A DNA stretch of 64,000 nucleotides from Rhodopseudomonas palustris (GTDB taxonomy: Bacteria; Pseudomonadota; Alphaproteobacteria; Rhizobiales; Xanthobacteraceae): contig NZ_CP140155.1 in the NCBI RefSeq assembly GCF_034479375.1, positions 3,386,501 to 3,450,500 of the forward strand, read 5' to 3'. A program made the translations under genes and the position numbers. The notes under the pieces are model-generated. The model did no database searches. It saw only the letters and a program-made list of their open reading frames with translations, and was not told where the DNA came from. Positions 35,358 to 54,323 of this stretch are shown piece by piece. Each line of letters starts with the position of its first letter. Position 1 is the stretch's first letter.

Positions 35358-36662
35358 CTATTCCGCCGCGATCAGTTGCGTTCGCCGGCCGCCGGCCTGC
35401 GCCAGCGCCTGATCGAGGTCGGCGATGATGTCGGAGATGTGCTCGATGCCGATCGACAGCCGGATCGTCTCCGGCAGCACGCCGGCGATGCGCTGCTGCT
35501 CGGCGGACATCTGCCGATGCGTGGTCGATGCCGGGTGGCAGGCGAGCGATTTGGCGTCGCCGATATTGACCAGCCGGGTGATCAGTTTCAGCGAATCGTA
35601 GAACGTCTTGCCGGCCTCGAGGCCGCCTGCGATGCCGAAGGTGAACAGCGACGACGCCCGGCCGCCGAGATATTTCTGCACCAGCTCGTAATACGGGCTG
35701 TCCGGAAATCCGGTGTAGTTCACCCATTCCACGCGCGGGTCGTCGCGCAGGAATTCCGCCACCTTGCGGGCGTTCTCGACATGGCGCTCCATCCGCAGCG
35801 CCACCGTCTCGATGCCCTGCAGCAGCAGGAACGCGTTGAACGGCGACAGCACCGAGCCCATCGTGCGCTGATAGATGCTGCGGGCGCGCTCGATATAGGC
35901 GGTCGGGCCGAACCGCTCGGCATAGACCATGCCGTGATAGGAATGATCGGGCTGGTTGAACGCCGGGAAGCGCTGCGGCTGCGCCGCCCAGTCGAACCGG
36001 CCGCTGTCGACGATGATGCCGCCGAGCGTGGTGCCGTGGCCGCCGAGGAACTTGGTCAGCGAATGCACCACGATGTCGGCGCCGTAGTCGAACGGCTTCA
36101 GCAGGATCGGCGTCGCCACCGTGTTGTCGACGATCAGCGGCACGCCGTGCCGATGCGCCACCTCGGCGATGCGCTCGATGTCGCAGACATTGCCGGCGGG
36201 GTTGCCGATGGTCTCGCAGAACACCGCGCGGGTGTTCTCGTCGATCAGCCGCTCGATCGCGTCGGGCTGGTCGCTGTCGGCGAAGCGGCCGTGGATGCCC
36301 TGGCGCGGCAGGATGTGCGACAGCAGCGTGTGCGTGGTGCCGTAGAGCTGCGGCACCGAGACGATGTTGCCGCCGTGATCGGCGACGTTGACGAACGCGT
36401 AGTGCAGCGCCGCCTGGCCGCTGGCGACGGCGAGCGCGCCGACGCCGCCCTCGAGCTCGGCGACGCGCTTCTCCAGCACGGCGCTGGTCGGGTTGGCGAT
36501 CCGCGAATAGCGATAGCCTTCGGTCTCGAGATTGAACAGAGCGGCGCCGTGATCGGCGCTGTCGAACGCGTAGGAGGCGGTCTGATAGATCGGGACCGCG
36601 ACCGCCTTGGTGGTCGGATCGGGATCGTAGCCGGCGTGAATGGCAATCGTCTCGCTACGCAT
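35358..36662 (-). CDS. metY: O-acylhomoserine sulfhydrylase
   Basis: 434 residues, Cys/Met metabolism PLP family. The PLP lysine lies in VVHSLTKFLGGHG, with the N-terminal YSRIANPTSAVLE and SGQAALHY blocks. Its length and the ETIAIHAGYDPDPTTKAV start match the MetY (O-acetyl/succinylhomoserine sulfhydrylase) class, making homocysteine from acylated homoserine and sulfide. A strong GGAGGTGAG ribosome site precedes the ATG at 36662. It is first in the minus-strand operon. I found no convincing SAM riboswitch in the 5' leader. Confidence 0.92.
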   Translation of the reverse strand: MRSETIAIHAGYDPDPTTKAVAVPIYQTASYAFDSADHGAALFNLETEGYRYSRIANPTSAVLEKRVAELEGGVGALAVASGQAALHYAFVNVADHGGNIVSVPQLYGTTHTLLSHILPRQGIHGRFADSDQPDAIERLIDENTRAVFCETIGNPAGNVCDIERIAEVAHRHGVPLIVDNTVATPILLKPFDYGADIVVHSLTKFLGGHGTTLGGIIVDSGRFDWAAQPQRFPAFNQPDHSYHGMVYAERFGPTAYIERARSIYQRTMGSVLSPFNAFLLLQGIETVALRMERHVENARKVAEFLRDDPRVEWVNYTGFPDSPYYELVQKYLGGRASSLFTFGIAGGLEAGKTFYDSLKLITRLVNIGDAKSLACHPASTTHRQMSAEQQRIAGVLPETIRLSIGIEHISDIIADLDQALAQAGGRRTQLIAAE

Positions 36663-36937
36663 GGGCTCACCTCCGCATTGCCGAGGCTGCGACTTCTCGC
36701 GCAGTCCGTGGGCGTCGTCTTTGCTAGAGCGGAGATCTTTAATCGACAACAAATTTCGAAAATGACGACAAACTAACCCTAATTTCAGATGATAAATCGA
36801 TGACAATTTGAATCGAATCCGACGCATCGGAGTTCGTTTACCTTGCCGACGCTTTGTGCTCGCCCCGACACTCGATCTTCGATCGCATTCGCGTAAGTTG
36901 CGTCGACAATTTTCTCGATGTTGTCGGGCTCGCGTTG

Positions 36938-38832: not shown

Positions 38833-39705
38833 ATGACTCCGGCACCCGCACCGATCAGCTTCTCCAGGACCTGGACCTTCTTCGAAGGCGACTGGCACGA
38901 CGGCAACGTGCCGATCATGGGGCCGCGCACCCACGCGGCCTGGCTCGGCTCGATGGTGTTCGACGGCGCCCGCGCCTTCGAAGGCGTGACGCCCGATCTC
39001 GACCGCCACATCGCGCGGGTCAATTGGTCGGCGACCAATTTCAAGCTCAAGGCGATGATCGACGAAGAGACCTGGCACGGCCTGGTGCAGGACGGGCTGA
39101 AGCGGTTCGACGCCGACGCCGAACTCTACATCCGGCCGATGTACTGGCCGCAGACCGGCGCCGGCGGCGGCGTGCTGTTCGATCCGGAGACGACCAACTG
39201 GTGCCTGTGCATCTACGAAGCGCCGATGCCGAAGCCGACCGGGCTGTCGATCACGCTGTCGCCGTTCCGCAAGCCGAGCGCCGATTGCGCCGTGGTGGAC
39301 GCCAAGGCCGGTTGCCTCTATCCGAACAATTCGCGGGCGATGATCGAGGCGCAGAGCCGCGGCTTCGGCAATTGCCTGATGCGCGACATGCTGGGCAACA
39401 TCGCCGAGCTCGGCAATTCCAACATCTTCATGGCGAAGGACGGCGTGGTCTACACGCCGGCCCCGAACGGCACGTTCCTCAACGGCGTGACGCGACAGCG
39501 GGTGATCGAACTGCTGCGCGGCGACGGCGTCACCGTGGTCGAATCGACGCTGACCTATCGCGACTTCGAGACCGCGGACGAAATCTTCGCCTCGGGCAAT
39601 TTCGCCAAGGTGCAACCGATCGTGAAGATCGACGACCGCGCGCTGCAGCCGGGGCCGATGTTCGCCAAAGCGCGCAAGCTGTATTGGGAGTTCGCGCACG
39701 GGTGA
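38833..39705 (+). CDS. Class IV (branched-chain/D-amino-acid type) aminotransferase
   Basis: 290 residues, PLP fold type IV. Recognisable: the PLP lysine in VVDAKAGCLYPNN, GNIAELGNSNIFMAKDG (family AE-x-NIF), GTFLNGVTRQRVIELL (TRxxV) and FASGNFAKVQP. It exchanges the amino group between an amino acid and a 2-oxo acid; the sequence does not settle branched-chain, D-amino or aminodeoxychorismate-type substrates. Follows the acyl-CoA synthetase gene and precedes a repeat-filled gap. Confidence 0.88.
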   Translation: MTPAPAPISFSRTWTFFEGDWHDGNVPIMGPRTHAAWLGSMVFDGARAFEGVTPDLDRHIARVNWSATNFKLKAMIDEETWHGLVQDGLKRFDADAELYIRPMYWPQTGAGGGVLFDPETTNWCLCIYEAPMPKPTGLSITLSPFRKPSADCAVVDAKAGCLYPNNSRAMIEAQSRGFGNCLMRDMLGNIAELGNSNIFMAKDGVVYTPAPNGTFLNGVTRQRVIELLRGDGVTVVESTLTYRDFETADEIFASGNFAKVQPIVKIDDRALQPGPMFAKARKLYWEFAHG

Positions 39706-40012: not shown

Positions 40013-41692
40013 TCACGCCTTCGCCAGCGCCGCCTCGCGGATGCCGGACAGCGTGGCGCCGGGCAGAATCGCGTCGGGGTCGATCTTCAGATGGATGATC
40101 GACGGCAGGCCCGAGGCGCGCGCCGCCGTGAACGCCGCCGGAAAATCCGAGGTCTTCTCGACATTGGCGCCGAAGCCGCCGAAGGCGCGCGCATAGGCGG
40201 CGAAATCCGGATTGTGCAGCTCGGTGGCGGCGACGCGGCCCGGAAACTCGCGCTCCTGATGCATCCGGATGGTGCCGTACATGCCGTTGTCGCAGACCAC
40301 CACGACGATCGGCAGCCGATACTGCACGGCGATGGCGAATTCCTGCCCGCTCATCAGGAAGTCGCCGTCGCCATTGACCGACAGCACCAGCCGTTCCGGA
40401 TACAGCCGCTGCATCGCGATCGCGGCCGGCATGCCGTAGCCCATCGAGGCCGAGGTCGGCGCGACGTGCGTCATGTAGTTGCGGAAGCGATAGAACCGGT
40501 GAATCCAAGACGCGTAGTTGCCGGCGCCGTTGCACAGGATGGTGTCGGCCGGCACGTTGTCGCGCAGCCAAGTCATCACCTCGCCGAGATTGACGTCGCC
40601 GGGTTGCGGCGTCGCGGTCTCGGTCCAGGCGAGATAGTCGGCATGCGCCGCGTCGGCGGCCTCCTGCCATTCCGGTCGCGCGACGATGTCGAGTTTCGCC
40701 AACGCCGCGACGAAGCGCGCCGGCGAGGCGTGGATCGCGAGCTGCGGGCGATACACCCGGCCGAGCTCCTCGGCGCCGGGATGGATATGCACCAGCTTCG
40801 TCAGCGGCGCGGGGCTGTCGAGCAGCGCATAGCCCTGCGACGGGATTTCGCCGAGCCGCCCGCCGATCAGCACCAGCAGATCGGCCGCCCGGGCGCGCGC
40901 CACCAGCTTCGGATTGGGCCCGAGCCCGAGGTCGCCGGCGTAGCGCGGATGCAGCGGATCGAACAGCGTGCCGCGACGATAGCTGGTCGCGACCGGCAGC
41001 CCGGTGCGTGTCGCGATCCGCTCGATCTGCTCGCGCGCCTTCAGGCTCCAGCGGCTGCCGCCGAGCACGATCAGCGGCCGCTCCGCGCCGGCGAGCAGCG
41101 CCGCCAGCTCTTCCATCTCCTCGTCGCCGGGCGAGGTTTCGACCGGCCTGAACGCCGGCGCATTGGCCACCGTGACGCGCTCGCTCAGCACGTCCTTCGG
41201 CAGCGCGATCACCACCGGCCCCGGCCGGCCGCTGGTCGCGGTGTAGAACGCACGCGACACCAGCTCGGTGACGCGATCGGGATCGTCGATCTCGGTGGTC
41301 CATTTCGTCATGCTGCCGAACACGGCGCGATAGTCCAGTTCCTGAAACGCCTCGCGCTCCTTGACGCCGCGCTCGACCTGGCCGACGAACATGATCATCG
41401 GCGTCGAGTCCTGCCGTGCGACGTGGATGCCCGCCGACGCATTGGTGGCCCCCGGGCCGCGGGTGACGAAGCACACGCCCGGCTGCCCGGTGACCTTGCC
41501 GATCGCCTCCGCCATCATCGCCGCGCCGCCCTCGTGGCGGCAGACCGTGATGGTGATGTCGCGATCGCGCAGCGCGTTCAGCACCGGCAGGAAGCTCTCG
41601 CCCGGCACGCAGAACACGTGCCTGACACCGTTGATCACCAGTTGATCGACCAGCGCCTCGGCGGCAGTGCGGCTCTTGAGCGGTTGATGCAT
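40013..41692 (-). CDS. Thiamine diphosphate enzyme, acetolactate-synthase-like
   Basis: 559 residues with the three-domain layout of ThDP decarboxylase/synthase enzymes. The catalytic glutamate is Glu54 (CRHEGGAA), the central domain contains VLGGSRWS, and the ThDP motif GDGDFLMSG...NGMYGTI lies near residues 437-470. It decarboxylates a 2-oxo acid and transfers or releases the resulting unit; acetolactate synthase is only one option, and no small regulatory subunit is adjacent. It is 40 bases downstream of the GNAT gene, on the same strand. Product unknown. Confidence 0.85.
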   Translation of the reverse strand: MHQPLKSRTAAEALVDQLVINGVRHVFCVPGESFLPVLNALRDRDITITVCRHEGGAAMMAEAIGKVTGQPGVCFVTRGPGATNASAGIHVARQDSTPMIMFVGQVERGVKEREAFQELDYRAVFGSMTKWTTEIDDPDRVTELVSRAFYTATSGRPGPVVIALPKDVLSERVTVANAPAFRPVETSPGDEEMEELAALLAGAERPLIVLGGSRWSLKAREQIERIATRTGLPVATSYRRGTLFDPLHPRYAGDLGLGPNPKLVARARAADLLVLIGGRLGEIPSQGYALLDSPAPLTKLVHIHPGAEELGRVYRPQLAIHASPARFVAALAKLDIVARPEWQEAADAAHADYLAWTETATPQPGDVNLGEVMTWLRDNVPADTILCNGAGNYASWIHRFYRFRNYMTHVAPTSASMGYGMPAAIAMQRLYPERLVLSVNGDGDFLMSGQEFAIAVQYRLPIVVVVCDNGMYGTIRMHQEREFPGRVAATELHNPDFAAYARAFGGFGANVEKTSDFPAAFTAARASGLPSIIHLKIDPDAILPGATLSGIREAALAKA

Positions 41693-41732
41693 GGCGTTTC
41701 CCTGTGTTCTCGTTGCGGCGCCCGGCTTCGGG

Positions 41733-42608
41733 TCAGGGCCCGTAGAGCACGAGCTCGGTCTCGGTGAGGTCGGCGAGCCGCGGCGGGTTCGGGCCCTTGA
41801 AGTATTTGCGTCCACGCGTCTCGGTGTAGATGCCGGTCAGTCCCGCGACCGGGCCGTTGGCGTCGACCACCACCAGCGGCCGGCCGCGCCGGATCAGGAA
41901 GCCGCCGAGCGCGCGCGCGCAGCGCACGAAATCGGCGATGTCGCGGCAATACACCAGTTGCATCGCCGGCATCGGAAACCGGCCGCTCTTCATCCGCTTC
42001 GGCAGCATGATGAACGGGATCGCCTCGCCGCCGATCCGGCACACCAGCGACAGACAGCCGTAATCGGCGTGGCTGCGCAGCCGGTCGAGCTCGGCCTCGG
42101 GCAGGCCTGCGACGGCGGCCGTCGCGCCGGTCACCACTTCGACCGTCATGCCGCGCTCGCCGCGCGACAGCAGCGGCACCGAGAACAACATGCCGCTGCA
42201 ATAGCGGCGGAATCCTTGCGCCTCGATGATCGGCCAGGTGTTGGCGGCCGGCGAGATGTTGATGTAGGTGACGTGCTTGTGCTTCTGCGCCATCGACGTC
42301 AGCAGCGTCGCATAGTTGCGGAATTCCGGCGCGACGTACCAGCTCGATACGTTGCAGCGGATGTTCGGCTCGCCGGCCTCGATCCGTTGCGTGTAGAGCA
42401 GCAGCAGCACGCCGACCGGCCGCCCGTCGCTTTCGAGCAAATAACCGTATTGCGGGCATCCGGGCGGAACTTCGCGTTCACCCTGCCGGTGCAGGCCGCG
42501 CAGCCAGTAATCGCGCGTGCGGCCGGCGAAACCGCACGTCAGCAACTCCGAAACGGCTTCGATATCCGCCTCGACGATCTCGCGGCAGCGAACTTTGCGG
42601 GCATCCAT
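41733..42608 (-). CDS. GNAT-like acyltransferase, large form
   Basis: 291 residues, longer than a single GNAT domain (about 150-160). The N-terminal half (REIVEADIEAVSELL ... GYLLESDGRPVGVLLLLY) looks like an acyl-CoA N-acyltransferase core; the C-terminal half (MQLVYCRDIADFVRCARALGGFLIRRGRPLVVVDANGPV) has a second mixed alpha/beta region. Acyl donor could be CoA or the carrier protein encoded divergently 106 bases away. Followed 40 bases later by the ThDP enzyme, which may be co-transcribed. Confidence 0.7.
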   Translation of the reverse strand: MDARKVRCREIVEADIEAVSELLTCGFAGRTRDYWLRGLHRQGEREVPPGCPQYGYLLESDGRPVGVLLLLYTQRIEAGEPNIRCNVSSWYVAPEFRNYATLLTSMAQKHKHVTYINISPAANTWPIIEAQGFRRYCSGMLFSVPLLSRGERGMTVEVVTGATAAVAGLPEAELDRLRSHADYGCLSLVCRIGGEAIPFIMLPKRMKSGRFPMPAMQLVYCRDIADFVRCARALGGFLIRRGRPLVVVDANGPVAGLTGIYTETRGRKYFKGPNPPRLADLTETELVLYGP

Positions 42609-42714
42609 CGTCGTTTACCAATCGACCCGATTTGACGGCTCGGCACGTAGATTCAATTCATCTTTGAGCCATATGGTAGTTGTCTCACGGATCGAACAGG
42701 AAGGCGAAATATCG

Positions 42715-42960
42715 ATGTCTGTACGGTTAACGATTGTCACGATGATGCGGGAGATCGCCGCTGAGCAGAATCGCAAGCTGCCGGAGCTGACGGACGATCT
42801 CGTACTACACCAGTCCGGCTTCGATTCGCTGTGCTTCGCCATCCTGGTCGCACGGCTGGAAGACCAGCTCGGCATCGATCCGTTCACCGCCGCCGACGAC
42901 GCGATCTTTCCGGTGACGCTGGGCGACTTCATCGAGGCCTACGAGAATGTCCCGGCGTGA
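42715..42960 (+). CDS. Acyl carrier protein, stand-alone
   Basis: 81 residues. The phosphopantetheine site is Ser38 in QSGFDSLCFAILV; the preceding and following helices (LTIVTMMREIAAEQ, PVTLGDFIEAYENV) fit an ACP/PCP fold. The ribosome site AGGAAGG is 5-11 bases before the ATG at 42715. The AMP-ligase gene starts inside its 3' end (overlap of 14 bases), so the carrier and its likely loading enzyme are coupled. It is clearly unlike the fatty-acid AcpP. Confidence 0.85.
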   Translation: MSVRLTIVTMMREIAAEQNRKLPELTDDLVLHQSGFDSLCFAILVARLEDQLGIDPFTAADDAIFPVTLGDFIEAYENVPA

Positions 42961-44329
42961 ACCCGTTGCGCTGCGCAACTATCTCGCAGCCGGCCCGAGC
43001 GACCGCACGCTCTCGGACCCGACCGACAGCGTAGCGCTGGCGGAGATCGCGCACGGCACCGCGCTCGGCGGACGGCTGCCGGAGCTGGCGGGCCGCTCCG
43101 TGGTGCTGTCGCTGTCGACGCAACTGATCAGCGGCATCGCGATGATCGAGCTCGACGGCGTCGCGCGCCGCATGCTGTTGTGCCCGCCCGATTTCGACAT
43201 GAAGCATGCGCCGTCGCTGATCGCCGACGCGCAGGTCGACGCCGTCGTCACCGACGATCCGGCGCGCTGGGGAAATCTCGGCGTCGAGCTGATCGTCACC
43301 GCCGCTTTGCCGCTGCGGCCTGCCGCGCCGATCGAACTCACGCACGCCACCCAATGGCTGATGCTGACCTCCGGCACCACCGGCGCGCCGAAGATCGTGG
43401 CGCATACGCTGGCGGCGCTGACCGGCGCGATCGTCGCCGACGGCCCCGCACAAGGCGCGCCGCCGACCTGGGCGACGTTCTACGACATCCGCCGTTATGG
43501 CGGGCTGCAGATCTTCCTCCGCGCCGTGCTCGGCGGCGGCTCGATGGTGCTGTCCTCCCCCGGCGAGGCGATCGTGGATCATCTCGCACGGCTCGCCGCG
43601 CGCGGCGTCACGCATATTTCCGGCACGCCGTCGCATTGGCGCAAGGCGCTGATGAGCGCCGCGCTGGCGTCGTTCAGCCCGGACTACGTCCGGCTGTCCG
43701 GCGAGATCGCCGATCAGGCGGTGCTCGACAGCCTGCGCCGCGCCTTCCCGAGCGCCTCGATCGGCCATGCTTACGCCTCCACCGAGGCCGGCGTCGGCTT
43801 CGCCGTCAATGACGGCCGCGAGGGCTTTCCCGCCGCGATGATCGGCGCCGGCCCCAATGGCGTCGACATGCAGGTGATCGACGGCTCGCTGCGGATCCGG
43901 TCCGGGCGCACCGCGCATACTTATGTCGGGCGCAGCGCGCCGATGCTGACCGATTCCGACGGCTTCGTCGACACCGGCGACATGGTCGAACTGCGCGACG
44001 ATCGTTATTACTTCGTCGGCCGGCGCGACGGCATCATCAATGTCGGCGGCCTCAAGGTGCATCCGGAGGAAGTCGAGGCCGTGATCAACCGCCACCCCGC
44101 GGTGCGGATGTCGCGGATTCGCGCGCGGCGCAGCCCGATCACCGGCGCGCTGGTGGTCGCCGACGTGATGCTGGCGAGCGTCTCCGATTCCGGCCGCACC
44201 GGCGAGATCCGCGACGCGATCCTCGCCGACTGCAAGGCGTCGCTGCCGCCCCACAAGGTCCCGGCGATGGTGAACTTCGTCCAGCAGCTCGACGTCACCG
44301 CCTCCGGCAAGCTGGCCCGCCATGCGTAA
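42947..44329 (+). CDS. AMP-dependent ligase, probable loader of the adjacent ACP
   Basis: 460 residues, ANL superfamily. Core motifs: LTSGTTGAPKIVAHT (A3), YASTEAGVGFAVN (A5), DTGDMVELRDDRYYFVGRRDG (A7/A8), GLKVHPEEVE and the C-terminal lysine of TASGKLAR (A10). It is short and resembles acyl-AMP/acyl-ACP ligases; activation of a carboxylic acid and transfer to ACP pantetheine is the expected reaction. Overlaps the ACP upstream (14 bases) and the SDR downstream (8 bases), so the three form one tight operon. Confidence 0.85.
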   Translation: MSRREPVALRNYLAAGPSDRTLSDPTDSVALAEIAHGTALGGRLPELAGRSVVLSLSTQLISGIAMIELDGVARRMLLCPPDFDMKHAPSLIADAQVDAVVTDDPARWGNLGVELIVTAALPLRPAAPIELTHATQWLMLTSGTTGAPKIVAHTLAALTGAIVADGPAQGAPPTWATFYDIRRYGGLQIFLRAVLGGGSMVLSSPGEAIVDHLARLAARGVTHISGTPSHWRKALMSAALASFSPDYVRLSGEIADQAVLDSLRRAFPSASIGHAYASTEAGVGFAVNDGREGFPAAMIGAGPNGVDMQVIDGSLRIRSGRTAHTYVGRSAPMLTDSDGFVDTGDMVELRDDRYYFVGRRDGIINVGGLKVHPEEVEAVINRHPAVRMSRIRARRSPITGALVVADVMLASVSDSGRTGEIRDAILADCKASLPPHKVPAMVNFVQQLDVTASGKLARHA

Positions 44330-45053
44330 GGTGGTGGTCACCGGCGGCAGCCGCGGCATCGGGCTTTCGATCGCGCAGCGGCTCGCCGCGGCCGGCTACG
44401 GCGTCGTCGCCGTGGCGCGGCGGGAGAGCGAGGAACTAAGCGCGGCGATCGCCGCCGCCGCGCCCGGCCCCGGCGCGATCCATTTCAAGGCGTTCGATCT
44501 CGGCGAGATCGACGCCATTCCGGATTTCGTCAAGCGCCTGCGGCAGGAGTTCGGCTCGATCTACGGGCTGATCAACAACGCCGGGATCGGCACCGAAGGC
44601 GTGCTGGCGACGATGCACAACACGCAGATCGAGGCGCTGATCCGCATCAACGTCACCTCGCCGATCGTGCTGACCAAATACGTCGTCCGCCAGATGATGG
44701 CCGACGGCGGCGGCCGCATCGTCAACATGTCGTCGATCATCGGCTCGACCGGCTACAACGGCCTGTCGGTCTACGGCGCCACCAAGGCGGCCACCCTCGG
44801 CTTCACCCGCTCGCTCGCCCGCGAAGTCGGGCGGCTCGGCATCACCGTCAACGCGATCGCGCCGGGCTTCATCGACACCGAACTGACCAAGGGCCTCGCC
44901 GGCGACGGCCGCGACAAGATCGCGGGCCGCAGCGCGCTCCGCCGCCTGCCCGAGGTCGACGACGTCGCCCGCATGGTAGAGTACCTGCTCGGCGACGGCG
45001 GCCGCAACATCACCGGCGCGGTGCAGACCATCGACGCCGGGAACACGGCGTAG
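44322..45053 (+). CDS. SDR-family oxidoreductase, FabG-like
   Basis: 243 residues, classical SDR. TGGSRGIG (coenzyme site near residue 7), NNAG, the catalytic Ser (MSSIIGS) and Tyr-x3-Lys (YGATK), with the APGFIDTE tail. Probable 3-oxoacyl-[carrier protein] or other keto reduction on a carrier-bound intermediate, given its coupling to the ACP and ligase genes. Convergent with the amino acid:carrier protein ligase; the gap is filled by palindromic repeats. Confidence 0.88.
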   Translation: MRKVVVTGGSRGIGLSIAQRLAAAGYGVVAVARRESEELSAAIAAAAPGPGAIHFKAFDLGEIDAIPDFVKRLRQEFGSIYGLINNAGIGTEGVLATMHNTQIEALIRINVTSPIVLTKYVVRQMMADGGGRIVNMSSIIGSTGYNGLSVYGATKAATLGFTRSLAREVGRLGITVNAIAPGFIDTELTKGLAGDGRDKIAGRSALRRLPEVDDVARMVEYLLGDGGRNITGAVQTIDAGNTA

Positions 45054-45076
45054 TCCCGGGGCGGTTCACCCCCCGT

Positions 45077-45183
45077 CGTCATTCCGGGGCGCGTAGCACA
45101 GCTACGCGAACCCGGAATCCCGAGATGTTCTGCTCGTGTCGGATTCCGGGTTCACGCAGCTTCGCTGCGTGCCCCGGAATGAC
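45077..45183. repeat. Interspersed palindromic repeat, family 2, copy B
   Basis: CGTCATTCCGGGGCGCGTAGC...GCTACGCGAACCCGGAATCC plus the mirrored right half GGATTCCGGGTTCACGCAGC...GCCCCGGAATGAC. It sits in the gap between convergent operons and may terminate both. Confidence 0.87.
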
Positions 45184-45209
45184 AAGGGAGAGGGTTTGCT
45201 TGCGGCGAG

Positions 45210-45243
45210 ATTCCGGGTTCGCGCTTCGCGCGCCCCGGAATGA
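45210..45243. repeat. Interspersed repeat, family 2, half copy C
   Basis: ATTCCGGGTTCGCGCTTCGCGCGCCCCGGAATGAC: only the right half of the element, 30 bases from copy B. It lies 33 bases after the stop of the ligase (minus strand). Confidence 0.75.
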
Positions 45244-45275: not shown

Positions 45276-46214
45276 TTACAGCGCCGGCATCTCCCGCACG
45301 CCCGCCGGCCACGCCGCCGTGTCGATCCCATGCGTCGCGAACAGCGCCACCGCGAGACGATCCATGCCGAAGGCGACGCAGCCGGTGTGGGCGGGCTGGC
45401 CGGCGACATCGTCGATGCCCCAGGTGACGCCGAAATGCTCGCGGTGATAGTTGAAGCTCATGCAGGCGGTCGGCTGGTCTTCCGAGCGCAGCGGCACCAG
45501 CAGTTCGAATTTCAGCGCCTGCTGCTGCTGGCTGATCGCCTTCATCTGGCCGACGCGGCCGAAGAACGGATCGGAGGCGGTGTCGACGCGGAAGGCGAGG
45601 CCGAGGTCGCGGGCGATCGCCTGCGCCTTGCCCATCCAGCGCTCGCGGAAATCGGCGACGTCCTGCGACGTGCCGATGCAGACATATTCGCGCATCCGGA
45701 ACGATTGCAGCCGGTCGAGATGCTTCGACGGTTCGCGGCGGAAACAATCGGCGGCGACGTCGAAGCGCAGACCGCCGGCCGGCAGCGGGCCGCGGCTCGC
45801 GGCGATCGGATACACCGGATAGCAGGCCGCCGGCGACAGCACCAGATCGGCCGGCGACAGCGAACTGGTCCAGTCACCGCCGGCGTCGAACCGGCTCACC
45901 GCCGCGTTGATCTCCTGCTCGCTGCCGTGCAGACCGCAGACGCAGCCGAGCAGATTCGGGAAGCTCTTCAGATAGCCGGACTTCTCGAGCTGAGCGCGGC
46001 TCATCACCGGCGGAAACCGCATCACTTCGGTGCCGGCCTCGCGATGCCGCGAGATCAGCGCCGCGAGCTTCTCGACCACGCCCTCGTACAGCGCGGTGCG
46101 GGCATAGACGCCGTCGGCGCCCATGCGATGGAACAGCTGCTCGGCGAGATGATCGAGCGCATCGACAGGCTTCGCTTCGGCTTGGGACGGAACCTTGCGG
46201 ATCGCGACGTTCAT
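45276..46214 (-). CDS. Amino acid:[carrier protein] ligase (seryl-tRNA-synthetase-like)
   Basis: 312 residues, a stand-alone class II aaRS catalytic domain without a tRNA-binding arm. Motif 2-like FRREPSKHLDRLQSFRMRE and motif 3 GCVAFGMDRLAVAL are intact. Cys131 (AACYPV), Glu176 (MREYVC) and Cys279 (TGCVAF) match the Cys-Glu-Cys zinc ligand set of atypical SerRS and of Bradyrhizobium glycine/alanine:[carrier protein] ligases, which charge a carrier protein instead of tRNA. The substrate is likely Gly or Ala. It lies 35 bases after the ACAD gene; its carrier is probably the protein at 47810. Confidence 0.9.
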   Translation of the reverse strand: MNVAIRKVPSQAEAKPVDALDHLAEQLFHRMGADGVYARTALYEGVVEKLAALISRHREAGTEVMRFPPVMSRAQLEKSGYLKSFPNLLGCVCGLHGSEQEINAAVSRFDAGGDWTSSLSPADLVLSPAACYPVYPIAASRGPLPAGGLRFDVAADCFRREPSKHLDRLQSFRMREYVCIGTSQDVADFRERWMGKAQAIARDLGLAFRVDTASDPFFGRVGQMKAISQQQQALKFELLVPLRSEDQPTACMSFNYHREHFGVTWGIDDVAGQPAHTGCVAFGMDRLAVALFATHGIDTAAWPAGVREMPAL

Positions 46215-46249
46215 GAGGTGGCCTCCTCGAAAGATCGGTGACGGTGCGT

Positions 46250-47467
46250 TCAGTCGCGCAGGCTCGCCGGCACCGCGCTCATCAGGCTGGCGGTGGCGAT
46301 ATTGGCGAGGATGCGGTCGTTGTTGATCATCAGCGGCGCCGACAGCACGTCGCGCAGATGCCGACCGATGGTGAAATCGCCGTCGTTGCGATAGCCGGAC
46401 AGGCCGCAGGCGCGCAGCGCGCTCATCACCGTCGCCACCGCGAGATCGGAGGCCTCGACCTTCAGCAGGTTGATCGCCGACTGGAATTCCAGCGAGCCGA
46501 GGCCGCGTTCGTCGTATTCGTGCGCCGCATAGGCGTCGAGATTGGCGGCGATCAGCGCGCGCAGCTTCAGCAGCGACATCTTCGCGCCGTTGTAGTGCGT
46601 AGCACCCGGCGGCATCTGGCCGCCCGCGCCGCGCGCCGCTTTGCGGATGAAGCCTTGCGCCCGCTCGACCGAGGCCGCCGCGATGCCGGCCCAGGCCGAC
46701 GACCACGACAGATGCGCGACCGGCGTCATGGTCTGCGCGTGAATGCGTTCATACGGCTCGGCGAACACCTGGGCGGCGAGGCCATTGGCCTTCAGTTCGA
46801 AGCCGGCGCTGCAGGTGCCGCGCATGCCGAGGGTTTCCCAGCCCAGCGTCGGCGTCAGCGTGTAGTCGTCCCTGGTGAACACCACCAGCACCTGATCCGA
46901 CGCAGCCGCCTCGGAGGCCCGCCGCGCGATCGTCATCACGCCGTCGGCTTCGGCGCCGTAGGAAATCACCGTGGCGTTGCGGACCAGCGATACGCCGGCG
47001 TCGGTCACCTCGATCGCCGCGGCGCTGGCGCGGATGTTGCCGCCGTTGTTGCCTTCGGTGGTCGACGACGCCAGCAGCATCTGTTCGGCGGCGATCCGTC
47101 GCATCAACTGCTCGTGCCAGTCGCCGCCGCGGCCGTGCCGCACCAGGCACGCAACCTTGGTTTGATGCATCGCGACGATCATCGCGGTGGAGGCGCAGGC
47201 GCGTCCCAGCGCGTAGCACATCTCGGTGACGTCGTGGATGGTCGCGCCCTCGCCGCCGAATTCGACCGGAATCTGCGCGCCCAGCAGGCCATGCGCCTTC
47301 GCCGCGTCGATCGCCGCGCGCGGAAACCGCGATTGTTTGTCGACGCTATCGGCATCGGCGGCCGCGATCGCGGCGACCTGTGCCACGCGCTGCGACAGCG
47401 GGACGGTTTCGCGCCGGAATGGAACGGTCGCGGCATTGCGGACGCTGTTGTCTGTGATGATCGCCAT
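46250..47467 (-). CDS. Acyl-CoA-dehydrogenase-like flavoprotein
   Basis: 405 residues, ACAD fold. N-terminal helical domain, middle beta domain around 130-250 (TEGNNGGNIRASAAAI, SYGAEADGVMTIARR) and C-terminal helical domain ending GDFTIGRHLRDVLSAPLMINNDRI. Where classical acyl-CoA dehydrogenases carry the catalytic glutamate (YEGT) this protein reads INND, so the usual alpha-proton base is absent there. It may act on a carrier-bound aminoacyl group or do flavin chemistry other than beta-oxidation. Start at 47467 by ATG after GAGGAGCG; operon with the ligase. Confidence 0.85.
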   Translation of the reverse strand: MAIITDNSVRNAATVPFRRETVPLSQRVAQVAAIAAADADSVDKQSRFPRAAIDAAKAHGLLGAQIPVEFGGEGATIHDVTEMCYALGRACASTAMIVAMHQTKVACLVRHGRGGDWHEQLMRRIAAEQMLLASSTTEGNNGGNIRASAAAIEVTDAGVSLVRNATVISYGAEADGVMTIARRASEAAASDQVLVVFTRDDYTLTPTLGWETLGMRGTCSAGFELKANGLAAQVFAEPYERIHAQTMTPVAHLSWSSAWAGIAAASVERAQGFIRKAARGAGGQMPPGATHYNGAKMSLLKLRALIAANLDAYAAHEYDERGLGSLEFQSAINLLKVEASDLAVATVMSALRACGLSGYRNDGDFTIGRHLRDVLSAPLMINNDRILANIATASLMSAVPASLRD

Positions 47468-47809
47468 GACGTCGGTCGCTCCTCGGGGCCTTGGACGGGC
47501 TCGATCGCGACGGCGCTGATGGTTCGCGCCTCTGTTGGTCGGCGATCGCGGCTGCAAGCTATGGGAGGGCGGCCGCGCCCGTCGAGAACTATCAAAGTGA
47601 ATCAATTTGGATTCGAATCCGACGGTTAATCCGGGATTGCACCAATAGGCGCAATTCTCCGGTTTCCCGTTAGCGTTAAAATTCGAATCGTCGCGGCCGG
47701 CAATCCGCCGCGATTGTTTCCGCTAATTTTCTGCGCTTACATCTCGAATGAAACACGATGCACCGCGACGACGCGCGGCGCCGACACCAACAACGATCAG
47801 GAGGTTGCG
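47468..47809. other. Divergent promoter region of the amino acid:carrier protein locus
   Basis: About 340 bases without a gene, between the ACAD/ligase operon (minus) and the carrier/cupin pair (plus). It contains a 12-base perfect palindrome GGATTCGAATCC (47609-47620) and a related AATTCGAATCG (about 47680-47690), with AT-rich stretches. A shared operator for both directions is possible. Confidence 0.45.
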
Positions 47810-48079
47810 ATGCAGGGCACGGACGCCACGGTTCAGAACAGGATCCTCGCGCTGGTCGAGTCGATCCTCGCGCAGAATGCGATGCCCGGCGGCGTGAAGC
47901 CCGATACGCGCCTCGCCGACGCCGGCCTCACCTCGATGGAAATGGTGAACCTGATGCTCGGCGTCGAAGCCCTGTTCGACATGACGCTGCCGCAGTCGGA
48001 TATCACGCCCGAGAATTTCACATCGGTCGAGACCATCGAGCGCCTCGTGCTTTCGCGTCTGCAGATGCAGGCGGCCTGA
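47810..48079 (+). CDS. Carrier protein, probable acceptor of the amino acid:[carrier protein] ligase
   Basis: 89 residues. The pantetheine attachment site is Ser42 in DAGLTSMEMVNLML; helix 1 (VQNRILALVESILAQNA) and the acidic loop (MTLPQSDITPENF) complete a four-helix carrier fold. A strong GGAGG site precedes the ATG at 47810. It is divergent from the ligase/ACAD operon and followed by the cupin gene; this arrangement is like loci with aa:CP ligases in Bradyrhizobium. No NRPS condensation or thioesterase gene is present to take the amino acid on. Confidence 0.88.
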   Translation: MQGTDATVQNRILALVESILAQNAMPGGVKPDTRLADAGLTSMEMVNLMLGVEALFDMTLPQSDITPENFTSVETIERLVLSRLQMQAA

Positions 48080-48147
48080 TCGCGCCGGCGCCGGATGCAG
48101 ATCGATCAGCACAGTCAACGTAGCACATCCCACCAGGAGTCGACCCG

Positions 48148-48603
48148 ATGTCCACGAACCTGATCCTCACCTCCAAGACCGATGTCGAACTGAAGCCGGC
48201 TCCGATCGAGCCGTCCTGGATCATCGAGGGCAATCCGACCGCGACCAACGCGACGCTGTCGCGCAGCGCCGACGGCATGGCCTCGACGATCATCTGGCAG
48301 TGCACCGAAGGCAGGTTCGACTGGCACTACGACATCGACGAGACCATCTGCATTCTCGAAGGCTCGGTGGTGATCGAAAGCGAAGGCATGCCGGCGACCC
48401 GCTACGGGCCGGGCGACGTGATCTTCTTCAAGGACGGCGCCAGCGCGCGCTGGCACGTCGAGGGCCACGTCCGCAAAATCGCGTTCTGCCGCCGAACCCA
48501 GCCGAAGCTGGTCGGATTAGCGGTCCGCGCATTCGCCAAGCTGCGCTCGCTGCTGCTGCCGTCGAGCCAGCGCCCGGTGCAGTCGCTACTCGGCGCCAAC
48601 TAA
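48148..48603 (+). CDS. Cupin-domain protein
   Basis: 151 residues, single conserved beta-barrel. Cupin motif 1 is WHYDIDETICILEGSVVIE and motif 2 is GPGDVIFFKDGASARWHVEG; the two His/Glu positions of motif 1 and His of motif 2 are mostly retained. It resembles DUF861-type (ethanolamine/ureidoglycolate-related) cupins. It follows the carrier-protein gene by 68 bases with a GGAG site. The role may be isomerase, sensor or dioxygenase; nothing decides. Confidence 0.8.
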   Translation: MSTNLILTSKTDVELKPAPIEPSWIIEGNPTATNATLSRSADGMASTIIWQCTEGRFDWHYDIDETICILEGSVVIESEGMPATRYGPGDVIFFKDGASARWHVEGHVRKIAFCRRTQPKLVGLAVRAFAKLRSLLLPSSQRPVQSLLGAN

Positions 48604-49082: not shown

Positions 49083-49667
49083 ATGGGGTTCACTCTCGGC
49101 AGGACTGGCAGGCCGTCGATTCTCGCGGTCGTGTATTCGGATGGCGCGGCTGCCTGCCGCATGATCTCGGACCTCGGCTATCGGCTGCGGAGCGCGGGCG
49201 TCGCCGTCGCCGGGATCGTCCCGTATCACGCGACGCGCGACAGCGTCCCGCGCTGCGACATGGAGGTCGAGGAACTGGCCTCGCGGATCATCCTGCAACT
49301 CGCCGAAGACCAGACGCCGCAATCGAGCGGTTGCCGGGTCGATCCGCTGGCGATCCAGGACGCCGCCGCGCTGATATCGGCCGCGTTTCAGAAGTGCCCG
49401 GAACTGCTGATCGTCAACAAGTTCGGCCAGCTCGAGGCCGACGGCGGCGGGCTCGGCGACGCGATCACCGAGGCGGTCGAACTCGGCATCCCGGTGCTGG
49501 TCGGCGTGCCGGAGCGCCGGCTCGAGCGCTGGCGGGAATTCACCAACGGGCTCGCCGAAGAGGCGATGATCGACTCGCCGCGGGTGCAGCAATGGCTGGC
49601 GCGGCGCGGCTTAGCGTCCCAGCGCAGCCGCATCGGCGCGCCGCTGGCCCTCAACTCGGCCGCCTGA
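49083..49667 (+). CDS. DUF2478 protein next to the nif/fix region
   Basis: 194 residues; the N-terminus (RTGRPSILAVVYSDGAAACRMISDLGYRLRSAGVAVAGIVPY) fits the DUF2478 pattern, a P-loop-like alpha/beta fold with no clear Walker A. The family is often found near molybdenum transport or nitrogenase genes, so a nitrogen-fixation or molybdenum link is inferred, not shown. Convergent with fixX; two repeats separate them. No sigma-54 or NifA site was found upstream. Confidence 0.75.
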   Translation: MGFTLGRTGRPSILAVVYSDGAAACRMISDLGYRLRSAGVAVAGIVPYHATRDSVPRCDMEVEELASRIILQLAEDQTPQSSGCRVDPLAIQDAAALISAAFQKCPELLIVNKFGQLEADGGGLGDAITEAVELGIPVLVGVPERRLERWREFTNGLAEEAMIDSPRVQQWLARRGLASQRSRIGAPLALNSAA

Positions 49668-49705
49668 TTGATTGAAGCGATATGGCCCCTGCCACATGGG
49701 ATGAC

Positions 49706-49813
49706 TCCTCATCCTGAGGAGCCCGGCGAAGCCGGGCGTCTCGAAGGATGATGCCAAGGTGCCTTGCGGCGCATGGTTCGAGACGGCGCTGCGCGCCTCC
49801 TCACCATGAGGCT
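49706..49813. repeat. Interspersed repeat, family 3, copy B
   Basis: CTCATCCTGAGGAGCCCGGC...GTCTCGAAGGATGATGCC, then GCATGGTTCGAGACGGCGC...CTCACCATGAGGCTG. Related to the copy at 39738; downstream of the DUF2478 gene. Confidence 0.75.
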
Positions 49814-49885
49814 GTGCTGTGGTGAGCTGCTCGGAATGCCCGTGCTGATTCCATCGGAAACAGAACGGCTCTCACGGGAAAGAAA

Positions 49886-49917
49886 CGTCGATGGCCGGGA
49901 CGAGCCCGGCCATGACG
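49886..49917. repeat. Interspersed palindromic repeat, family 1, half copy D
   Basis: CGTCGATGGCCGGGACGAGCCCGGCCATGACG: the right-hand arm alone, eleven bases before the stop side of fixX. It forms a stable hairpin and may terminate the fix operon transcript. Confidence 0.75.
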
Positions 49918-49927
49918 GAATGAAGGA

Positions 49928-50224
49928 TCAGCCGAACTTGAACAGCACGCCGTAGCCGCCGCGCGGGTAGTTCCATTCGATGTCGCCGTTGCCTTCGGCG
50001 ATCACCCGGCAGGTGCCGCATTCGACGCAGCCGTCGGGCGTTACCTCGACCTGGCCGTTGGTGTTCAGCTCGTAGCAATGCGCCGGACACACCTTGATCA
50101 GCGCCAGCAATTCCGCCGACGGCTTGGTGTGCGGCTTCACCTTGATGTGAGCGTTGCCGACGTCGACCAGATAGCGGTTCTGGAACAGCTTGTCTTCGAC
50201 TCGGATCGGGGCTTCCACCGTCAT
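49928..50224 (-). CDS. fixX: FixX ferredoxin-like protein
   Basis: 98 residues. Cysteines CPAHC and CVECGTCR bind Fe-S (one [4Fe-4S]); the rest is the FixX N-terminal region ([14 protein letters not shown]). Fourth member of the FixABCX flavin-based electron bifurcating complex, which transfers electrons from NADH to ferredoxin/flavodoxin and quinone for nitrogenase. GGAGAGCGAG precedes the ATG. Last gene of the operon; a hairpin follows. Confidence 0.95.
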
Positions 50225-50263
50225 TGTCTCGCTCTCCGCGTTTGAGTTCGTCGCTGTCGTCGA

Positions 50264-51571
50264 CTATCGCCACGCCCGCGCGAAGCGGAAGGCGTCGCCG
50301 AACAGGCCGGTCCAGGATCGTGCCGACACGAACGACTTGATGGTGACCTTCTCCTTGTCGACCTTGGGCGTGCCGTCGACCCGCACGAAGTTCTGCAGCG
50401 CCTTGTTGATGAGCTGCGGATAGGTCAGGAAGAAGTTCTGCGACTGGATGTGCAGCAGATCCGGCATATCCTTGTACTTCTTCAGATCCTTGATGACGAA
50501 GCTGTCGTCCAGCATCTTCTTGTAGAGCGCGAGATTTTCCTTGGTCATCGGATCCTTGCGCGACTTGACCTGGAAGATCGCCTCGCCGGCGATCCGGCCG
50601 GAGGTCATCGCCAGATTGGAGCCCTCGCGATGCAGCGCGTTGTTGAGCTGCGCCGCGTCGCCGACCACCACCCAGCCGTCGCCATAGAGCTGCGGGATCG
50701 CCTTGTAGCCGCCCTCGGGAATGAGGTGGCCGGCATATTCCTTGACCTCGGAGCCTTCGATCAGCGGCGCGATCGAGGGATGCTTCTTGAAGCGTTCGAG
50801 CAGATCGTAGGGCGTCTCGCCGGTCTTCTGGAAATCCGCCACCAGGCAGCCGATGCCGACCGAAACCGATTCCTTGTTGGCGTAGACGAAGCCCATCCCG
50901 GTCATGCCGCGGGAGATCGTGCCCGCCGCCTCGATCACCACGCCCTCGTCGCCCTTCAGATTGAATCGCGCCTCAATGGTCTCGCGCGGCAGGAAGTGCA
51001 TTTCCTTCACGGCGAGCGCGACGTTGTCCGGCGCCGGCCGGTCGCGTAGCTCCGCCTTGGTGCCGAGCAGGCCGTTGACGCCCTCCGCCAGCACGACGAC
51101 GTCGGCATGGACCTCGCCGCCCTCGCGGTCGGTGATCACGCCGATCACCTTGCCGTAGGCGTCCTTGACCAGTTCCTTGACGGTGGTCTCGCACAGCACG
51201 ATGGCGCCGGCTTCCTGCGCCTGGCCGGAGAACCATTTGTCGAACTGCGCGCGGATGATGGTGTAGCGGTTCGGCTTCTCTTCGTTGAAGTCGTCCGAGC
51301 GATAATGCAGCCCGGTATGCGAGCGCTCGTCCATCATCCAGAACCGCTGCTCGACCAGATGACGCTCGAGCGGCGCATCCTCGCGGAAGTTCGGCACCAG
51401 CTTCTCCAGCATGTCGGCGTAGAGAATCGCGCCCTGGACGTTTTTCGAGCCGGGATATTCACCGCGCTCGATCTGCAGCACCTTCATGCCGCGTTTGGCC
51501 ATCGTCAGCGCGGCGGCGTTTCCGGCCATGCCGGCGCCGACCACGATCGCGTCGAAACGTTCCTCGATCAT
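50264..51571 (-). CDS. fixC: FixC electron-transfer flavoprotein:quinone oxidoreductase-like
   Basis: 435 residues. FAD-binding motif [22 protein letters not shown] at about 8-29; later [14 protein letters not shown] and [23 protein letters not shown]. It is the flavoprotein that passes electrons to quinone within FixABCX. Between fixB (12 bases upstream) and fixX (39 bases downstream), so within one operon. Confidence 0.96.
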
Positions 51572-51583
51572 GGCGAACTCCTG

Positions 51584-52687: not shown

Positions 52688-52711
52688 GAGACTGCTTTCA
52701 AATGGGTGTTG

Positions 52712-53557: not shown

Positions 53558-53609
53558 GGTGAGCTCCGCGCTTGCTGACACGACGACATCAGCCTGACAC
53601 AGGGACATC

Positions 53610-53625
53610 AGCAAGCCTCGTACCA
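53610..53625 (-). promoter_or_regulatory. Sigma-54 promoter of fixABCX
   Basis: Minus-strand TGGTACG-AGGC-TTGCT matches TGGCACG-N4-TTGCW with one substitution in the -24 element and the required GG-N10-GC spacing. It lies about 53 bases before the fixA ATG and 105-120 bases downstream of the NifA site. Confidence 0.8.
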
Positions 53626-53714
53626 ACTTTTCCGCCGGCGAAATTCGACCGATAAAGCAACGGTTTGCGCCGGACCGGCGAACGCCTTGGAATGGTTCTC
53701 GATGAACGCGACCC

Positions 53715-53733
53715 GACAAGTGTGACACTTGTC
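53715..53733. promoter_or_regulatory. 19-base perfect inverted repeat overlapping the fixA NifA site
   Basis: GACAAGTGT-G-ACACTTGTC, palindromic over 19 bases. Its right end overlaps the first TGT of the NifA element (53730-53745). It matches no consensus I know (not FixK, NtrC or NifA), so a separate regulator could bind here. Confidence 0.55.
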
Positions 53734-53745
53734 AGGAAGGCGACA
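53730..53745. promoter_or_regulatory. NifA upstream activator site of fixA
   Basis: TGT-CAGGAAGGCG-ACA, the TGT-N10-ACA NifA consensus, 173 bases upstream of the fixA ATG. The core CAGG-N3-GCG recurs in the site before iscA. Confidence 0.82.
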
Positions 53746-53780
53746 GCGCTTTCGATAAGGACGCCCGGAATATCCAGCCC

Positions 53781-53867
53781 CGTCATGGCCGGGCTCGTCC
53801 CGGCCATCCACGTCAGCGCACGACAGCACCAAGAACGTGGATGGCCGGCACAAGGCCGGCCATGACG
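53781..53867. repeat. Interspersed palindromic repeat, family 1, copy E
   Basis: CGTCATGGCCGGGCTCGTCC...GTGGATGGCCGGCACAAGG...CATGACG. It separates the nifW end from the fixA upstream region, so it may end the nifUSVW transcript before fixA. Confidence 0.87.
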
Positions 53868-53908
53868 GAAGGATGCGTACGATCTTTGGTGAAAAAACTT
53901 GCTGGCGG

Positions 53909-54280: not shown

Positions 54281-54323
54281 GTCATTCTCCTTCGGATGTG
54301 GCTTGCGGTGAAGCCCTCAGCTC

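What the first reader, a model, noticed from the sequence alone, without database searches (positions are those of the whole stretch)
45276..48603. Amino acid:[carrier protein] ligase locus with ACAD-like enzyme, carrier protein and cupin but no NRPS
The 312-residue SerRS-like protein lacks a tRNA-binding arm but keeps motif 2, motif 3 and the Cys131-Glu176-Cys279 zinc set of known glycine/alanine:[carrier protein] ligases. A carrier protein (Ser42) is encoded divergently. An acyl-CoA-dehydrogenase-like flavoprotein without the usual YEGT glutamate is in the ligase operon and a cupin follows the carrier. Oxidation of carrier-bound aminoacyl groups by ACAD-like enzymes is known for prolyl thioesters. 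Inference: the amino acid is loaded, modified by the flavoprotein and possibly released or transferred in a route not named in any pathway I know.
Basis: partly seen in the sequence, partly recalled or inferred. Interest (0 to 1): 0.82.

Follow-up and report, generated by a model that had tools for sequence, protein, structure and literature searches.

The report
Carrier-bound glycine oxidation gene cluster
A Rhodopseudomonas-like bacterium carries genes that appear to hang an amino acid, probably glycine, on a small carrier protein and oxidise it there, and these genes co-occur with a larger set of partner genes, which gives a concrete lead on an enzyme family whose purpose a 2022 review still called unknown.

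Summary
In detail: ligase 45276-46214(-), ACAD-like flavoprotein 46250-47467(-), carrier 47810-48079(+), cupin 48148-48603(+). The ligase is a close relative of Bll0957. In 398 genomes, all 28 with a ligase above the family cut-off also have this ACAD-like protein; one other genome has it, beside a carrier and a DltA-like loader. Of 7 plasmid loci opened, 6 show the ACAD-like gene near a carrier and a loader; one (pRL10) has no loader in the stretch. The ACAD glutamate is Ile/Val in every sequence checked, which argues against ordinary acyl-CoA dehydrogenation; the best precedent is ChmG, an ACAD-superfamily N-oxygenase of prolyl-carrier protein. Downstream there are two branches: all 32 ligase+ACAD genomes examined have either a 291-residue, weakly GNAT-like protein with a second-carrier/AMP-ligase cassette (this window; 15) or DUF1839 (18; one has both); none of 36 others has a strong match to either. 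The cupin tends to follow, mostly unlinked. A 2010 note already predicted monooxygenation and sugar attachment for the DUF1839 branch; I did not find this window's branch described. Best reading: glycine is loaded, N-oxygenated on the carrier, and passed on. Product unknown.

The parts
45276..46214 (-). amino acid:[carrier protein] ligase, 312 aa (SerRS-like core)
   Evidence: NF005479 478.9 bits, cut-off 357; Bll0957 3mey 598 bits; C131/E176/C279
46250..47467 (-). ACAD-like flavoprotein, 405 aa; Glu base replaced by Ile381; His252 invariant
   Evidence: PF02771 46.9 bits; alignments; 35 bases from the ligase
47810..48079 (+). carrier protein, Ser42, divergent from the ACAD-like gene (342-base gap)
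   Evidence: PF00550; divergent in 80 of 80 loci
48148..48603 (+). Cupin_3 protein, 151 aa, without the canonical metal histidines (motif recalled)
   Evidence: PF05899 69.5 bits; alignment A6; co-occurrence
41733..42608 (-). 291-aa protein, weakly GNAT-like, proposed transferase
   Evidence: Acetyltransf_1 E 0.095 in the window, best 0.004 among 8 relatives; co-occurrence; 79 of 80 loci
42712..42960 (+). second carrier protein (ACP2)
   Evidence: PF00550 23.3 bits; found beside the AMP-ligase in L112, L154-L156, L196, L198, L200-L202
42947..44329 (+). AMP-forming ligase, 460 aa
   Evidence: PF00501/PF13193; strong matches only in ligase+ACAD genomes of 398
44322..45053 (+). FabG-like SDR reductase
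   Evidence: PF00106 183.8 bits; beside the AMP-ligase in most other loci
40013..41698 (-). TPP enzyme, acetolactate-synthase-like (membership uncertain)
   Evidence: NF006052 883 bits; beside the 291-aa gene in L002-L004, L112, L156, L201, L202, L230, but absent from the stretches L005-L007 of three other Rhodopseudomonas
38833..39705 (+). class IV aminotransferase (BCAT-like)
   Evidence: PF01063 140 bits; in the stretches L002, L003, L005-L007, L035, L156, L229, L230
36854..38755 (+). FATP-type acyl-CoA synthetase (start uncertain)
   Evidence: NF006134 790 bits, cut-off 625; beside the AMP-ligase in genus g2 of the same family (L194-L198)
35361..36665 (-). MetY-like O-acylhomoserine sulfhydrylase (membership in the pathway uncertain)
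   Evidence: TIGR01326 618 bits, cut-off 495; LIG>MetY>HTS in L113
34345..35280 (-). homoserine O-succinyltransferase-like protein (start and membership uncertain)
   Evidence: NF003776 458.9 bits, cut-off 358

Best explanation
The ligase activates an amino acid, most likely glycine, with ATP and loads it on Ser42 of the vicinal carrier. The ACAD-like flavoprotein then oxidises the aminoacyl group while it is on the carrier, most likely at nitrogen (N-hydroxylation, possibly on to the oxime). A dedicated transferase, here the 291-residue protein, moves the product into a larger pathway that has a second carrier charged by its own AMP-ligase, a reductase, the cupin and perhaps the aminotransferase and TPP enzyme. 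Shown here: gene identity, conservation, co-occurrence, loss of the Glu base. Inferred: substrate (from Bll0957 and relatives), N-oxygenation, the transferase role. Unknown: acceptor and final product.
For: Ligase identity. ACAD-like in all 28 above-cut-off ligase genomes of 398, and in one other. That other locus (G567) has ACAD-like, carrier and a DltA-like loader. Of 7 plasmid records opened of 62 with a match, ACAD-like and carrier lie near an annotated AMP-binding or adenylation protein in Rhodococcus, Streptomyces and Agrobacterium and near the SerRS-like ligase in Priestia, Mycetohabitans and R. binae. Glu to Ile/Val in 35 of 35 (32 Ile, 3 Val) and in 10 of 10 across three phyla, His252 invariant in both. 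ChmG: ACAD-superfamily N-oxygenase on prolyl-carrier, Glu replaced by Met (PMC10849742, section 8 read). 32 of 32 ligase+ACAD genomes have the 291-aa protein or DUF1839, 0 of 36 others have a strong match. AMP-ligase strong in 14 of 398 genomes, all 14 ligase+ACAD. Cupin strong in 24 of 32 against 0 of 15. No condensation domain in the genome.
Against: No biochemistry was done. The best solved-structure match of the ACAD-like profile is a short-chain ACAD (91 bits); DnmZ, two FAD oxidoreductases (3m9v, 4kcf; KijD3 by recall) and a nitrososynthase score 63-68, so the fold family does not decide. His252 could serve as an alternative base, which would allow dehydrogenation. No flavin reductase is conserved beside the trio. 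L214 (Rhizobium johnstonii pRL10) has ACAD-like and carrier but no ligase match in 19 kb, and G131 and G316 have the ligase but no ACAD match in 19.5 kb. The GNAT label is weak. Genomes are related, so the p-values overstate independence. The structure predictor could not be run.
Confidence: 0.58

Rival explanations
1. The ACAD-like enzyme is a dehydrogenase of the carrier-bound amino acid (C-alpha to N, giving an imine, or dehydroalanyl if alanine is loaded), with His252 as base.
For: The top profile match and many others are ordinary ACADs; His252 is invariant and by my own alignment lies near the IVD/LCAD-type base position (that position is recalled).
Against: The MCAD-type Glu is gone in every member checked. 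N-oxygenation by a Glu-less ACAD-superfamily enzyme is shown for ChmG.
Confidence: 0.25
2. The oxidised aminoacyl group is attached to an amino sugar of a surface polysaccharide; the whole set is a polysaccharide-decoration system.
For: Predicted for the DUF1839 branch (PMC2922099); DUF1839 classed as papain-like, possibly glycan-processing (PMC10318531 passages); GH2/beta-mannosidase in that branch; a Wzc-like gene within 10 kb of the ligase in L144, L150, L153, L154, L155 and 17 kb away in the window; NfrA in G567; a far relative beside MBOAT (L118).
Against: The window's Wzc, glycosyltransferase, 505-aa and flippase queries had no match in the Bradyrhizobium stretches L009-L081, though L035 has a gene clustering with a deacetylase-like gene of L112 (read by eye); the Wzc association is post hoc, with 3-6 Wzz copies per genome in 9 genomes; aminotransferase, MetY and FATP genes are not typical of sugar decoration.
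Confidence: 0.35
3. The pathway makes a small diffusible antimetabolite or metallophore with an N-O group.
For: The Priestia locus has carrier-ACAD-ligase with exporter, ATP-grasp ligase, alanine permease and alanine racemase; the Agrobacterium relative has an AMP-binding protein, ACP and a formyltransferase; S. anulatus has SbnA and an adenylation protein; AurF N-oxygenase beside a far ligase in L117.
Against: Those loci are distant (33-40 percent ACAD identity for the first three) and may make different products; I saw no exporter among the genes listed under parts.
Confidence: 0.3
4. The neighbours outside the trio are chance neighbours, and the HTS and MetY genes are ordinary methionine genes.
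For: TPP, MetY and FATP types are widespread families; in genus g2 the AMP-ligase and cupin lie far from the ligase; the TPP gene is missing in L005-L007; I did not test whether HTS/MetY are the only copies.
Against: Much of the set recurs in another order (L112) and another family (L156, L154 with L230); AMP-ligase, 291-aa protein and cupin follow the ligase even when unlinked.
Confidence: 0.15

Closest known systems
Bll0957 aa:[carrier protein] ligase 1 and Bll0958 of Bradyrhizobium diazoefficiens
   Same: Close relative of the ligase; bll0958 is annotated acyl-CoA dehydrogenase. Both are up in a phaR mutant under microaerobiosis: transcript fold change 3.0 each, protein log2 change 2.5 and 1.7; no operon is predicted for either (PMC10888616, Table 1 passages).
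Agrobacterium Atu2574-type system (SerRS-like ligase, ACP, redox enzyme, uncharacterised ORF, glycosidase) predicted in PMC2922099
   Same: Same kind of ligase, carrier and redox enzyme; monooxygenation of the aminoacyl group already predicted.
   Different: That the uncharacterised ORF is DUF1839 is my reading. The window's genome has no DUF1839 but a 291-aa protein plus a second carrier module.
ChmG/ChmI/ChmJ, chalkophomycin (PMC10849742)
   Same: Loader, discrete carrier and Glu-less ACAD-superfamily flavoprotein acting on an aminoacyl-carrier.
   Different: Proline loaded by an adenylating enzyme, NRPS pathway; its sequence relation to the window's family was not measured here.
RedW/PigA prolyl-carrier dehydrogenases
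   Same: ACAD-fold oxidation of a carrier-bound amino acid.
   Different: Far below their NCBIfam cut-offs (27.8 of 650; 40.2 of 500); Glu absent.
Dlt system (DltA, DltC, MBOAT DltB; recalled)
   Same: Stand-alone loading of a small amino acid on a discrete carrier; DltA-like loader in G567, MBOAT beside a far ligase.
   Different: No MBOAT or DltA-like gene among the parts; SerRS-like loader.

Membership tests
amino acid:[carrier protein] ligase | score above NF005479 cut-off | tested here: met
   478.9 bits against 357
amino acid:[carrier protein] ligase | zinc set Cys-Glu-Cys and class II motifs 2 and 3, no tRNA-binding arm | tested here: met
amino acid:[carrier protein] ligase | vicinal carrier gene with Ppant serine | tested here: met
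   Ser42; carrier divergent in 80 of 80 loci
amino acid:[carrier protein] ligase | aminoacylation of the carrier, glycine preference | not testable with these tools
   needs an assay; inferred from Bll0957 (recalled; Gly/Ala/Ser use of the family in PMC9437257)
acyl-CoA dehydrogenase (catalytic) | catalytic Glu of YEGT | tested here: not met
   Ile381 or Val in 35 of 35 and 10 of 10
prolyl-carrier dehydrogenase (RedW/PigA) | NCBIfam cut-off and catalytic Glu | tested here: not met
   27.8 and 40.2 bits
ACAD-superfamily aminoacyl-carrier N-oxygenase (ChmG type) | Glu replaced, carrier and loader nearby | tested here: met
   (exception L214); criterion taken
ACAD-superfamily aminoacyl-carrier N-oxygenase (ChmG type) | closer to KijD3/DnmZ than to ACADs | tested here: inconclusive
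   63-68 bits against 91 for 7p98; structure prediction unavailable
ACAD-superfamily aminoacyl-carrier N-oxygenase (ChmG type) | N-oxygenation activity | not testable with these tools
   needs an assay
NRPS | condensation domain | tested here: not met
   none in G000; 7 of 16 genomes searched have some
GNAT acyltransferase (291-aa protein) | Pfam GNAT score above cut-off | tested here: not met
   13.4 bits, cut-off 20.7 in the window; 3 of 8 members hit weakly
Atu2574-type DUF1839 branch | DUF1839 in the genome | tested here: not met
   no match in G000

The most novel reading that the evidence does not exclude
An NRPS-free biosynthetic pathway with two dedicated carriers: one presents N-oxygenated glycine made on the carrier by a Glu-less ACAD-superfamily oxygenase, the other an AMP-ligase-activated, SDR-reduced acyl group, and the uncharacterised 291-residue transferase joins them, giving an unknown N-O metabolite or surface decoration in Rhodopseudomonas, Bradyrhizobium and scattered other Alphaproteobacteria.
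Probability: 0.28. Interest if true: 0.8.

Novelty: new variant of a known kind. Interest (0 to 1): 0.62.

Why it matters
[quoted passage not shown] Here the ligase is tied to a specific oxidising enzyme and to one of two nearly exclusive downstream branches. That makes the question directly testable with a short list of genes, names a likely reaction (N-oxygenation of carrier-bound glycine), and marks the cupin, the AMP-ligase and the 291-residue protein as partners; the cupin and AMP-ligase would be missed by gene neighbourhood alone in genomes where they are unlinked.

Tried and rejected
Structure prediction: the 291-aa alignment was submitted once and the ACAD-like alignment many times; a full queue turned them away. 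So no fold comparison was made.

Cupin as an N-nitrosating enzyme (by analogy with ham/fragin and SznF systems; passages): set aside, because the canonical cupin metal histidines are missing (the motif is recalled), although the cupin does co-occur.

Flavin reductase-like gene at 33827-34345 as the monooxygenase partner: not conserved. Its only tblastn match among the loci then held was in L116, and none lies between the HTS and Wzx matches of L005-L007.

Heuristic ORF calling lost the ligase in some loci ('nolig'), so ligase, ACAD and carrier counts rest on tblastn and profile searches. L109 and L114 (G131, G316) have a strong ligase but no ACAD match in 19.5 kb; their whole genomes were not searched with the ACAD profile, and I could not explain them. 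L214 has ACAD-like and carrier without a ligase match; not explained.

SigmaN-like and NifA-like sites in the 342-base carrier/ACAD gap by simple patterns: none found.

Full report
OBSERVATION. All four genes are present at the stated coordinates and the residue claims are right: ligase 312 aa with C131, E176, C279; carrier Ser42; an ACAD-like protein whose YEGT stretch reads LMINNDRI; a Cupin_3 protein. The ligase-ACAD gap is 35 bases, the divergent ACAD-carrier gap 342, the carrier-cupin gap 68. The ligase is a close relative of Bll0957 (598 bits to 3mey) and lies above the NF005479 cut-off. No condensation domain was found in the genome. The window lies in a single 5.3-Mb contig; the nearest named relatives of its ligase and ACAD-like protein are Rhodopseudomonas.

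THE TRIO. In 80 of 80 the ACAD-like gene is immediately upstream of the ligase and the carrier divergent. The 291-aa gene is matched in 79 of 80 (the exception, L008, is a 4.1-kb contig) and directly downstream of the ligase in 73; the cupin is in 7, the AMP-ligase in 6 and the TPP gene in 4 of these stretches. In an evenly drawn set of 398 genomes of the phylum, 44 had an NF005479 match and 28 were above the cut-off. The ACAD-like profile (18 sequences) matched 29 of the same 398 at E 1e-60 or better: the same 28 plus G567. In G567 the ACAD-like gene lies beside a carrier (PF00550) and a stand-alone DltA-like adenylation enzyme (TIGR01734 357.8 bits, below its cut-off of 559.85): the loader differs while ACAD and carrier are together. 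In the plasmid collection 62 records hold an ACAD-like match at 1e-50. I opened 7. Near the ACAD-like gene and a carrier there is an annotated AMP-binding or adenylation protein in Rhodococcus, Streptomyces anulatus and Agrobacterium salinitolerans and the SerRS-like ligase in Priestia, Mycetohabitans and Rhizobium binae. The seventh, Rhizobium johnstonii pRL10 (L214), has ACAD-like and carrier but no ligase match in 19 kb. On balance this is the strongest evidence that the flavoprotein works on aminoacyl-carrier.

WHAT THE FLAVOPROTEIN DOES. In register with true ACADs (RD...I anchors) the catalytic Glu is Ile381 here. It is Ile in 32 and Val in 3 of 35 aligned members, and Ile or Val in 10 of 10 from Pseudomonadota, Actinomycetota and Bacillota, while H101, W210, H252 and W259 are invariant in both sets. 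Among solved structures a short-chain ACAD ranks first (91 bits); DnmZ, two FAD oxidoreductases (3m9v, 4kcf; KijD3 by recall) and a nitrososynthase score 63-68 over most of the length, so sequence alone does not decide. The best precedent is ChmG, an ACAD-superfamily enzyme in which the Glu is Met and which N-oxygenates prolyl-carrier protein (PMC10849742, section 8 read, other passages seen). AlnG/AlaD of alanosine is a putative N-hydroxylase annotated as an ACAD (PMC11705231, passages). Independently, a far relative of the ligase sits with a carrier-sized gene and an AurF-type N-oxygenase (L117, PF11583 101.8 bits; related genes by clustering in L119 and L165). I put about 0.6 on N-oxygenation and 0.25 on C-N dehydrogenation with His252 as base; no experiment is behind either.

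THE LARGER SET. In Rhodopseudomonas (window and L002-L007) a convergent cassette (second carrier, AMP-ligase, SDR) lies between the ligase and the 291-aa gene; a TPP enzyme follows in the window and L002-L004 but not in L005-L007, where the aminotransferase follows instead. The set without cupin and aminotransferase nearby is in G140, another order (L112); with both it is in G547, another family (L156); in G629 it is split into two blocks on one contig (L154 and L230). Strong AMP-ligase matches (542 bits or more) occur in 14 of 398 genomes, all 14 within the 28 ligase+ACAD genomes; six weaker matches (177-330 bits) are in genomes without a strong ligase. The hypergeometric p is 1.8e-18 by genome and 4.1e-8 by genus (6 of 6 genera within 15 of 213), not corrected for shared descent. 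Within the window's family in that draw, 7 genomes have ligase, ACAD, AMP-ligase and 291-aa protein, and 5 have none of them at the thresholds used.

TWO BRANCHES. In 68 genomes that I chose by handle (32 ligase+ACAD, 2 ligase only, 34 without a strong ligase), the 291-aa protein is strong (267 bits or more) in 15, all ligase+ACAD; six further genomes give 59-83 bits, five without a strong ligase and G475. DUF1839 is in 18, all ligase+ACAD. So 32 of 32 have at least one, one genome (G551) has both, and 0 of 36 others have a strong match to either. ACAD presence in 28 of the 32 comes and in G140, G186, G280 and G358 from tblastn of their loci. The cupin is strong (124.9 bits or more) in 24 of 47 genomes searched: all 15 of the 291-aa branch and 9 further DUF1839 genomes, and in none of 15 without the ligase+ACAD pair (best 44.6 bits); so 8 of the 32 lack a strong one, and six genomes give only weak matches. 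In the DUF1839 branch the usual order is carrier-ACAD-ligase-DUF1839-GH2. DUF1839 is described as papain-like (PMC10318531, passages).

PRIOR ART. A 2022 review calls the role unknown (PMC9437257, passages). PMC10888616 (passages) lists bll0957 and bll0958 with transcript fold change 3.0 each and protein log2 change 2.5 and 1.7 in a phaR mutant. The original ligase paper is not held and is recalled. None of the paper searches that ran showed me the 291-aa/AMP-ligase branch; those genes have no published name to search for, and the library lacks most subscription journals.

PRODUCT. Unknown. For a polysaccharide: Wzc-like genes within 10 kb of the ligase in L144, L150, L153, L154 and L155 and 17 kb away in the window, against 3-6 Wzz copies per genome in the 9 genomes checked, a post hoc count; GH2 in the sister branch. 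For a small molecule: the Priestia plasmid locus with exporter, ATP-grasp, alanine permease and alanine racemase. MetY and HTS lie directly downstream of the ligase in G070 (L113) and are matched in L112, L156, L035, L157 and other stretches, but they could be ordinary methionine genes; I did not test that.

VERDICT. A real, conserved system; ligase chemistry known by homology; the carrier-bound oxidation well supported in outline and open in detail; the downstream branch of this window is, as far as I could search, undescribed. New variant of a known kind.

Noticed in passing
window 26543-33749: Polysaccharide genes: a Wzc-like protein (Wzz domain found by profile at this place), and glycosyltransferase-like and flippase-like genes read by eye from the translations.
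   Followed up: partly
window 33827-34345 (-): Small flavin reductase-like gene (read by eye, not scanned) beside the HTS-like gene; not conserved near the ligase elsewhere.
   Followed up: partly
window 49083-63846: DUF2478 gene, then fixX, fixC, fixB, fixA and further nif-like genes (names read by eye) next to the carrier and cupin.
   Followed up: no
L217 11262-19821: Priestia aryabhattai plasmid p-LAD4: holo-ACP synthase, carrier, ACAD-like, ligase, DMT exporter, ATP-grasp, hydrolase, alanine permease, alanine racemase; looks like a cluster for an alanine antimetabolite with self-protection.
   Followed up: partly
L115, L116, L118, L158: Far ligases (33-34 percent identity, near 400 aa) with an MBOAT-family gene next to them or nearby (L118 scanned; others by clustering); L118 also has a GNAT gene. 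A Dlt-like arrangement with a SerRS-like loader.
   Followed up: partly
L117 8073-10408, L119, L165: AurF-type N-oxygenase gene (L117 scanned), a carrier-sized gene and a far ligase in one row.
   Followed up: partly
L203, L204, L205: Weak AMP-ligase relatives in stretches with a gene that reads by eye like PseG of pseudaminic acid synthesis; hints at sugar acylation.
   Followed up: no
L109, L114 (G131, G316): Strong ligase without an ACAD-like match in 19.5 kb (a weak carrier match in L109 only); not explained.
   Followed up: no
L214 8654-10086: Rhizobium johnstonii pRL10: carrier and ACAD-like gene without a ligase match in 19 kb; possibly a remnant or a ligase elsewhere.
   Followed up: partly
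L074: Record titled Frankia sp. RB7 carries a Bradyrhizobium-like locus (83 percent ligase identity); the title may be wrong or the assembly contaminated.
   Followed up: no
window 45060-45240: Inverted repeat-like stretch between the convergent SDR and ligase genes, seen by eye.
   Followed up: no
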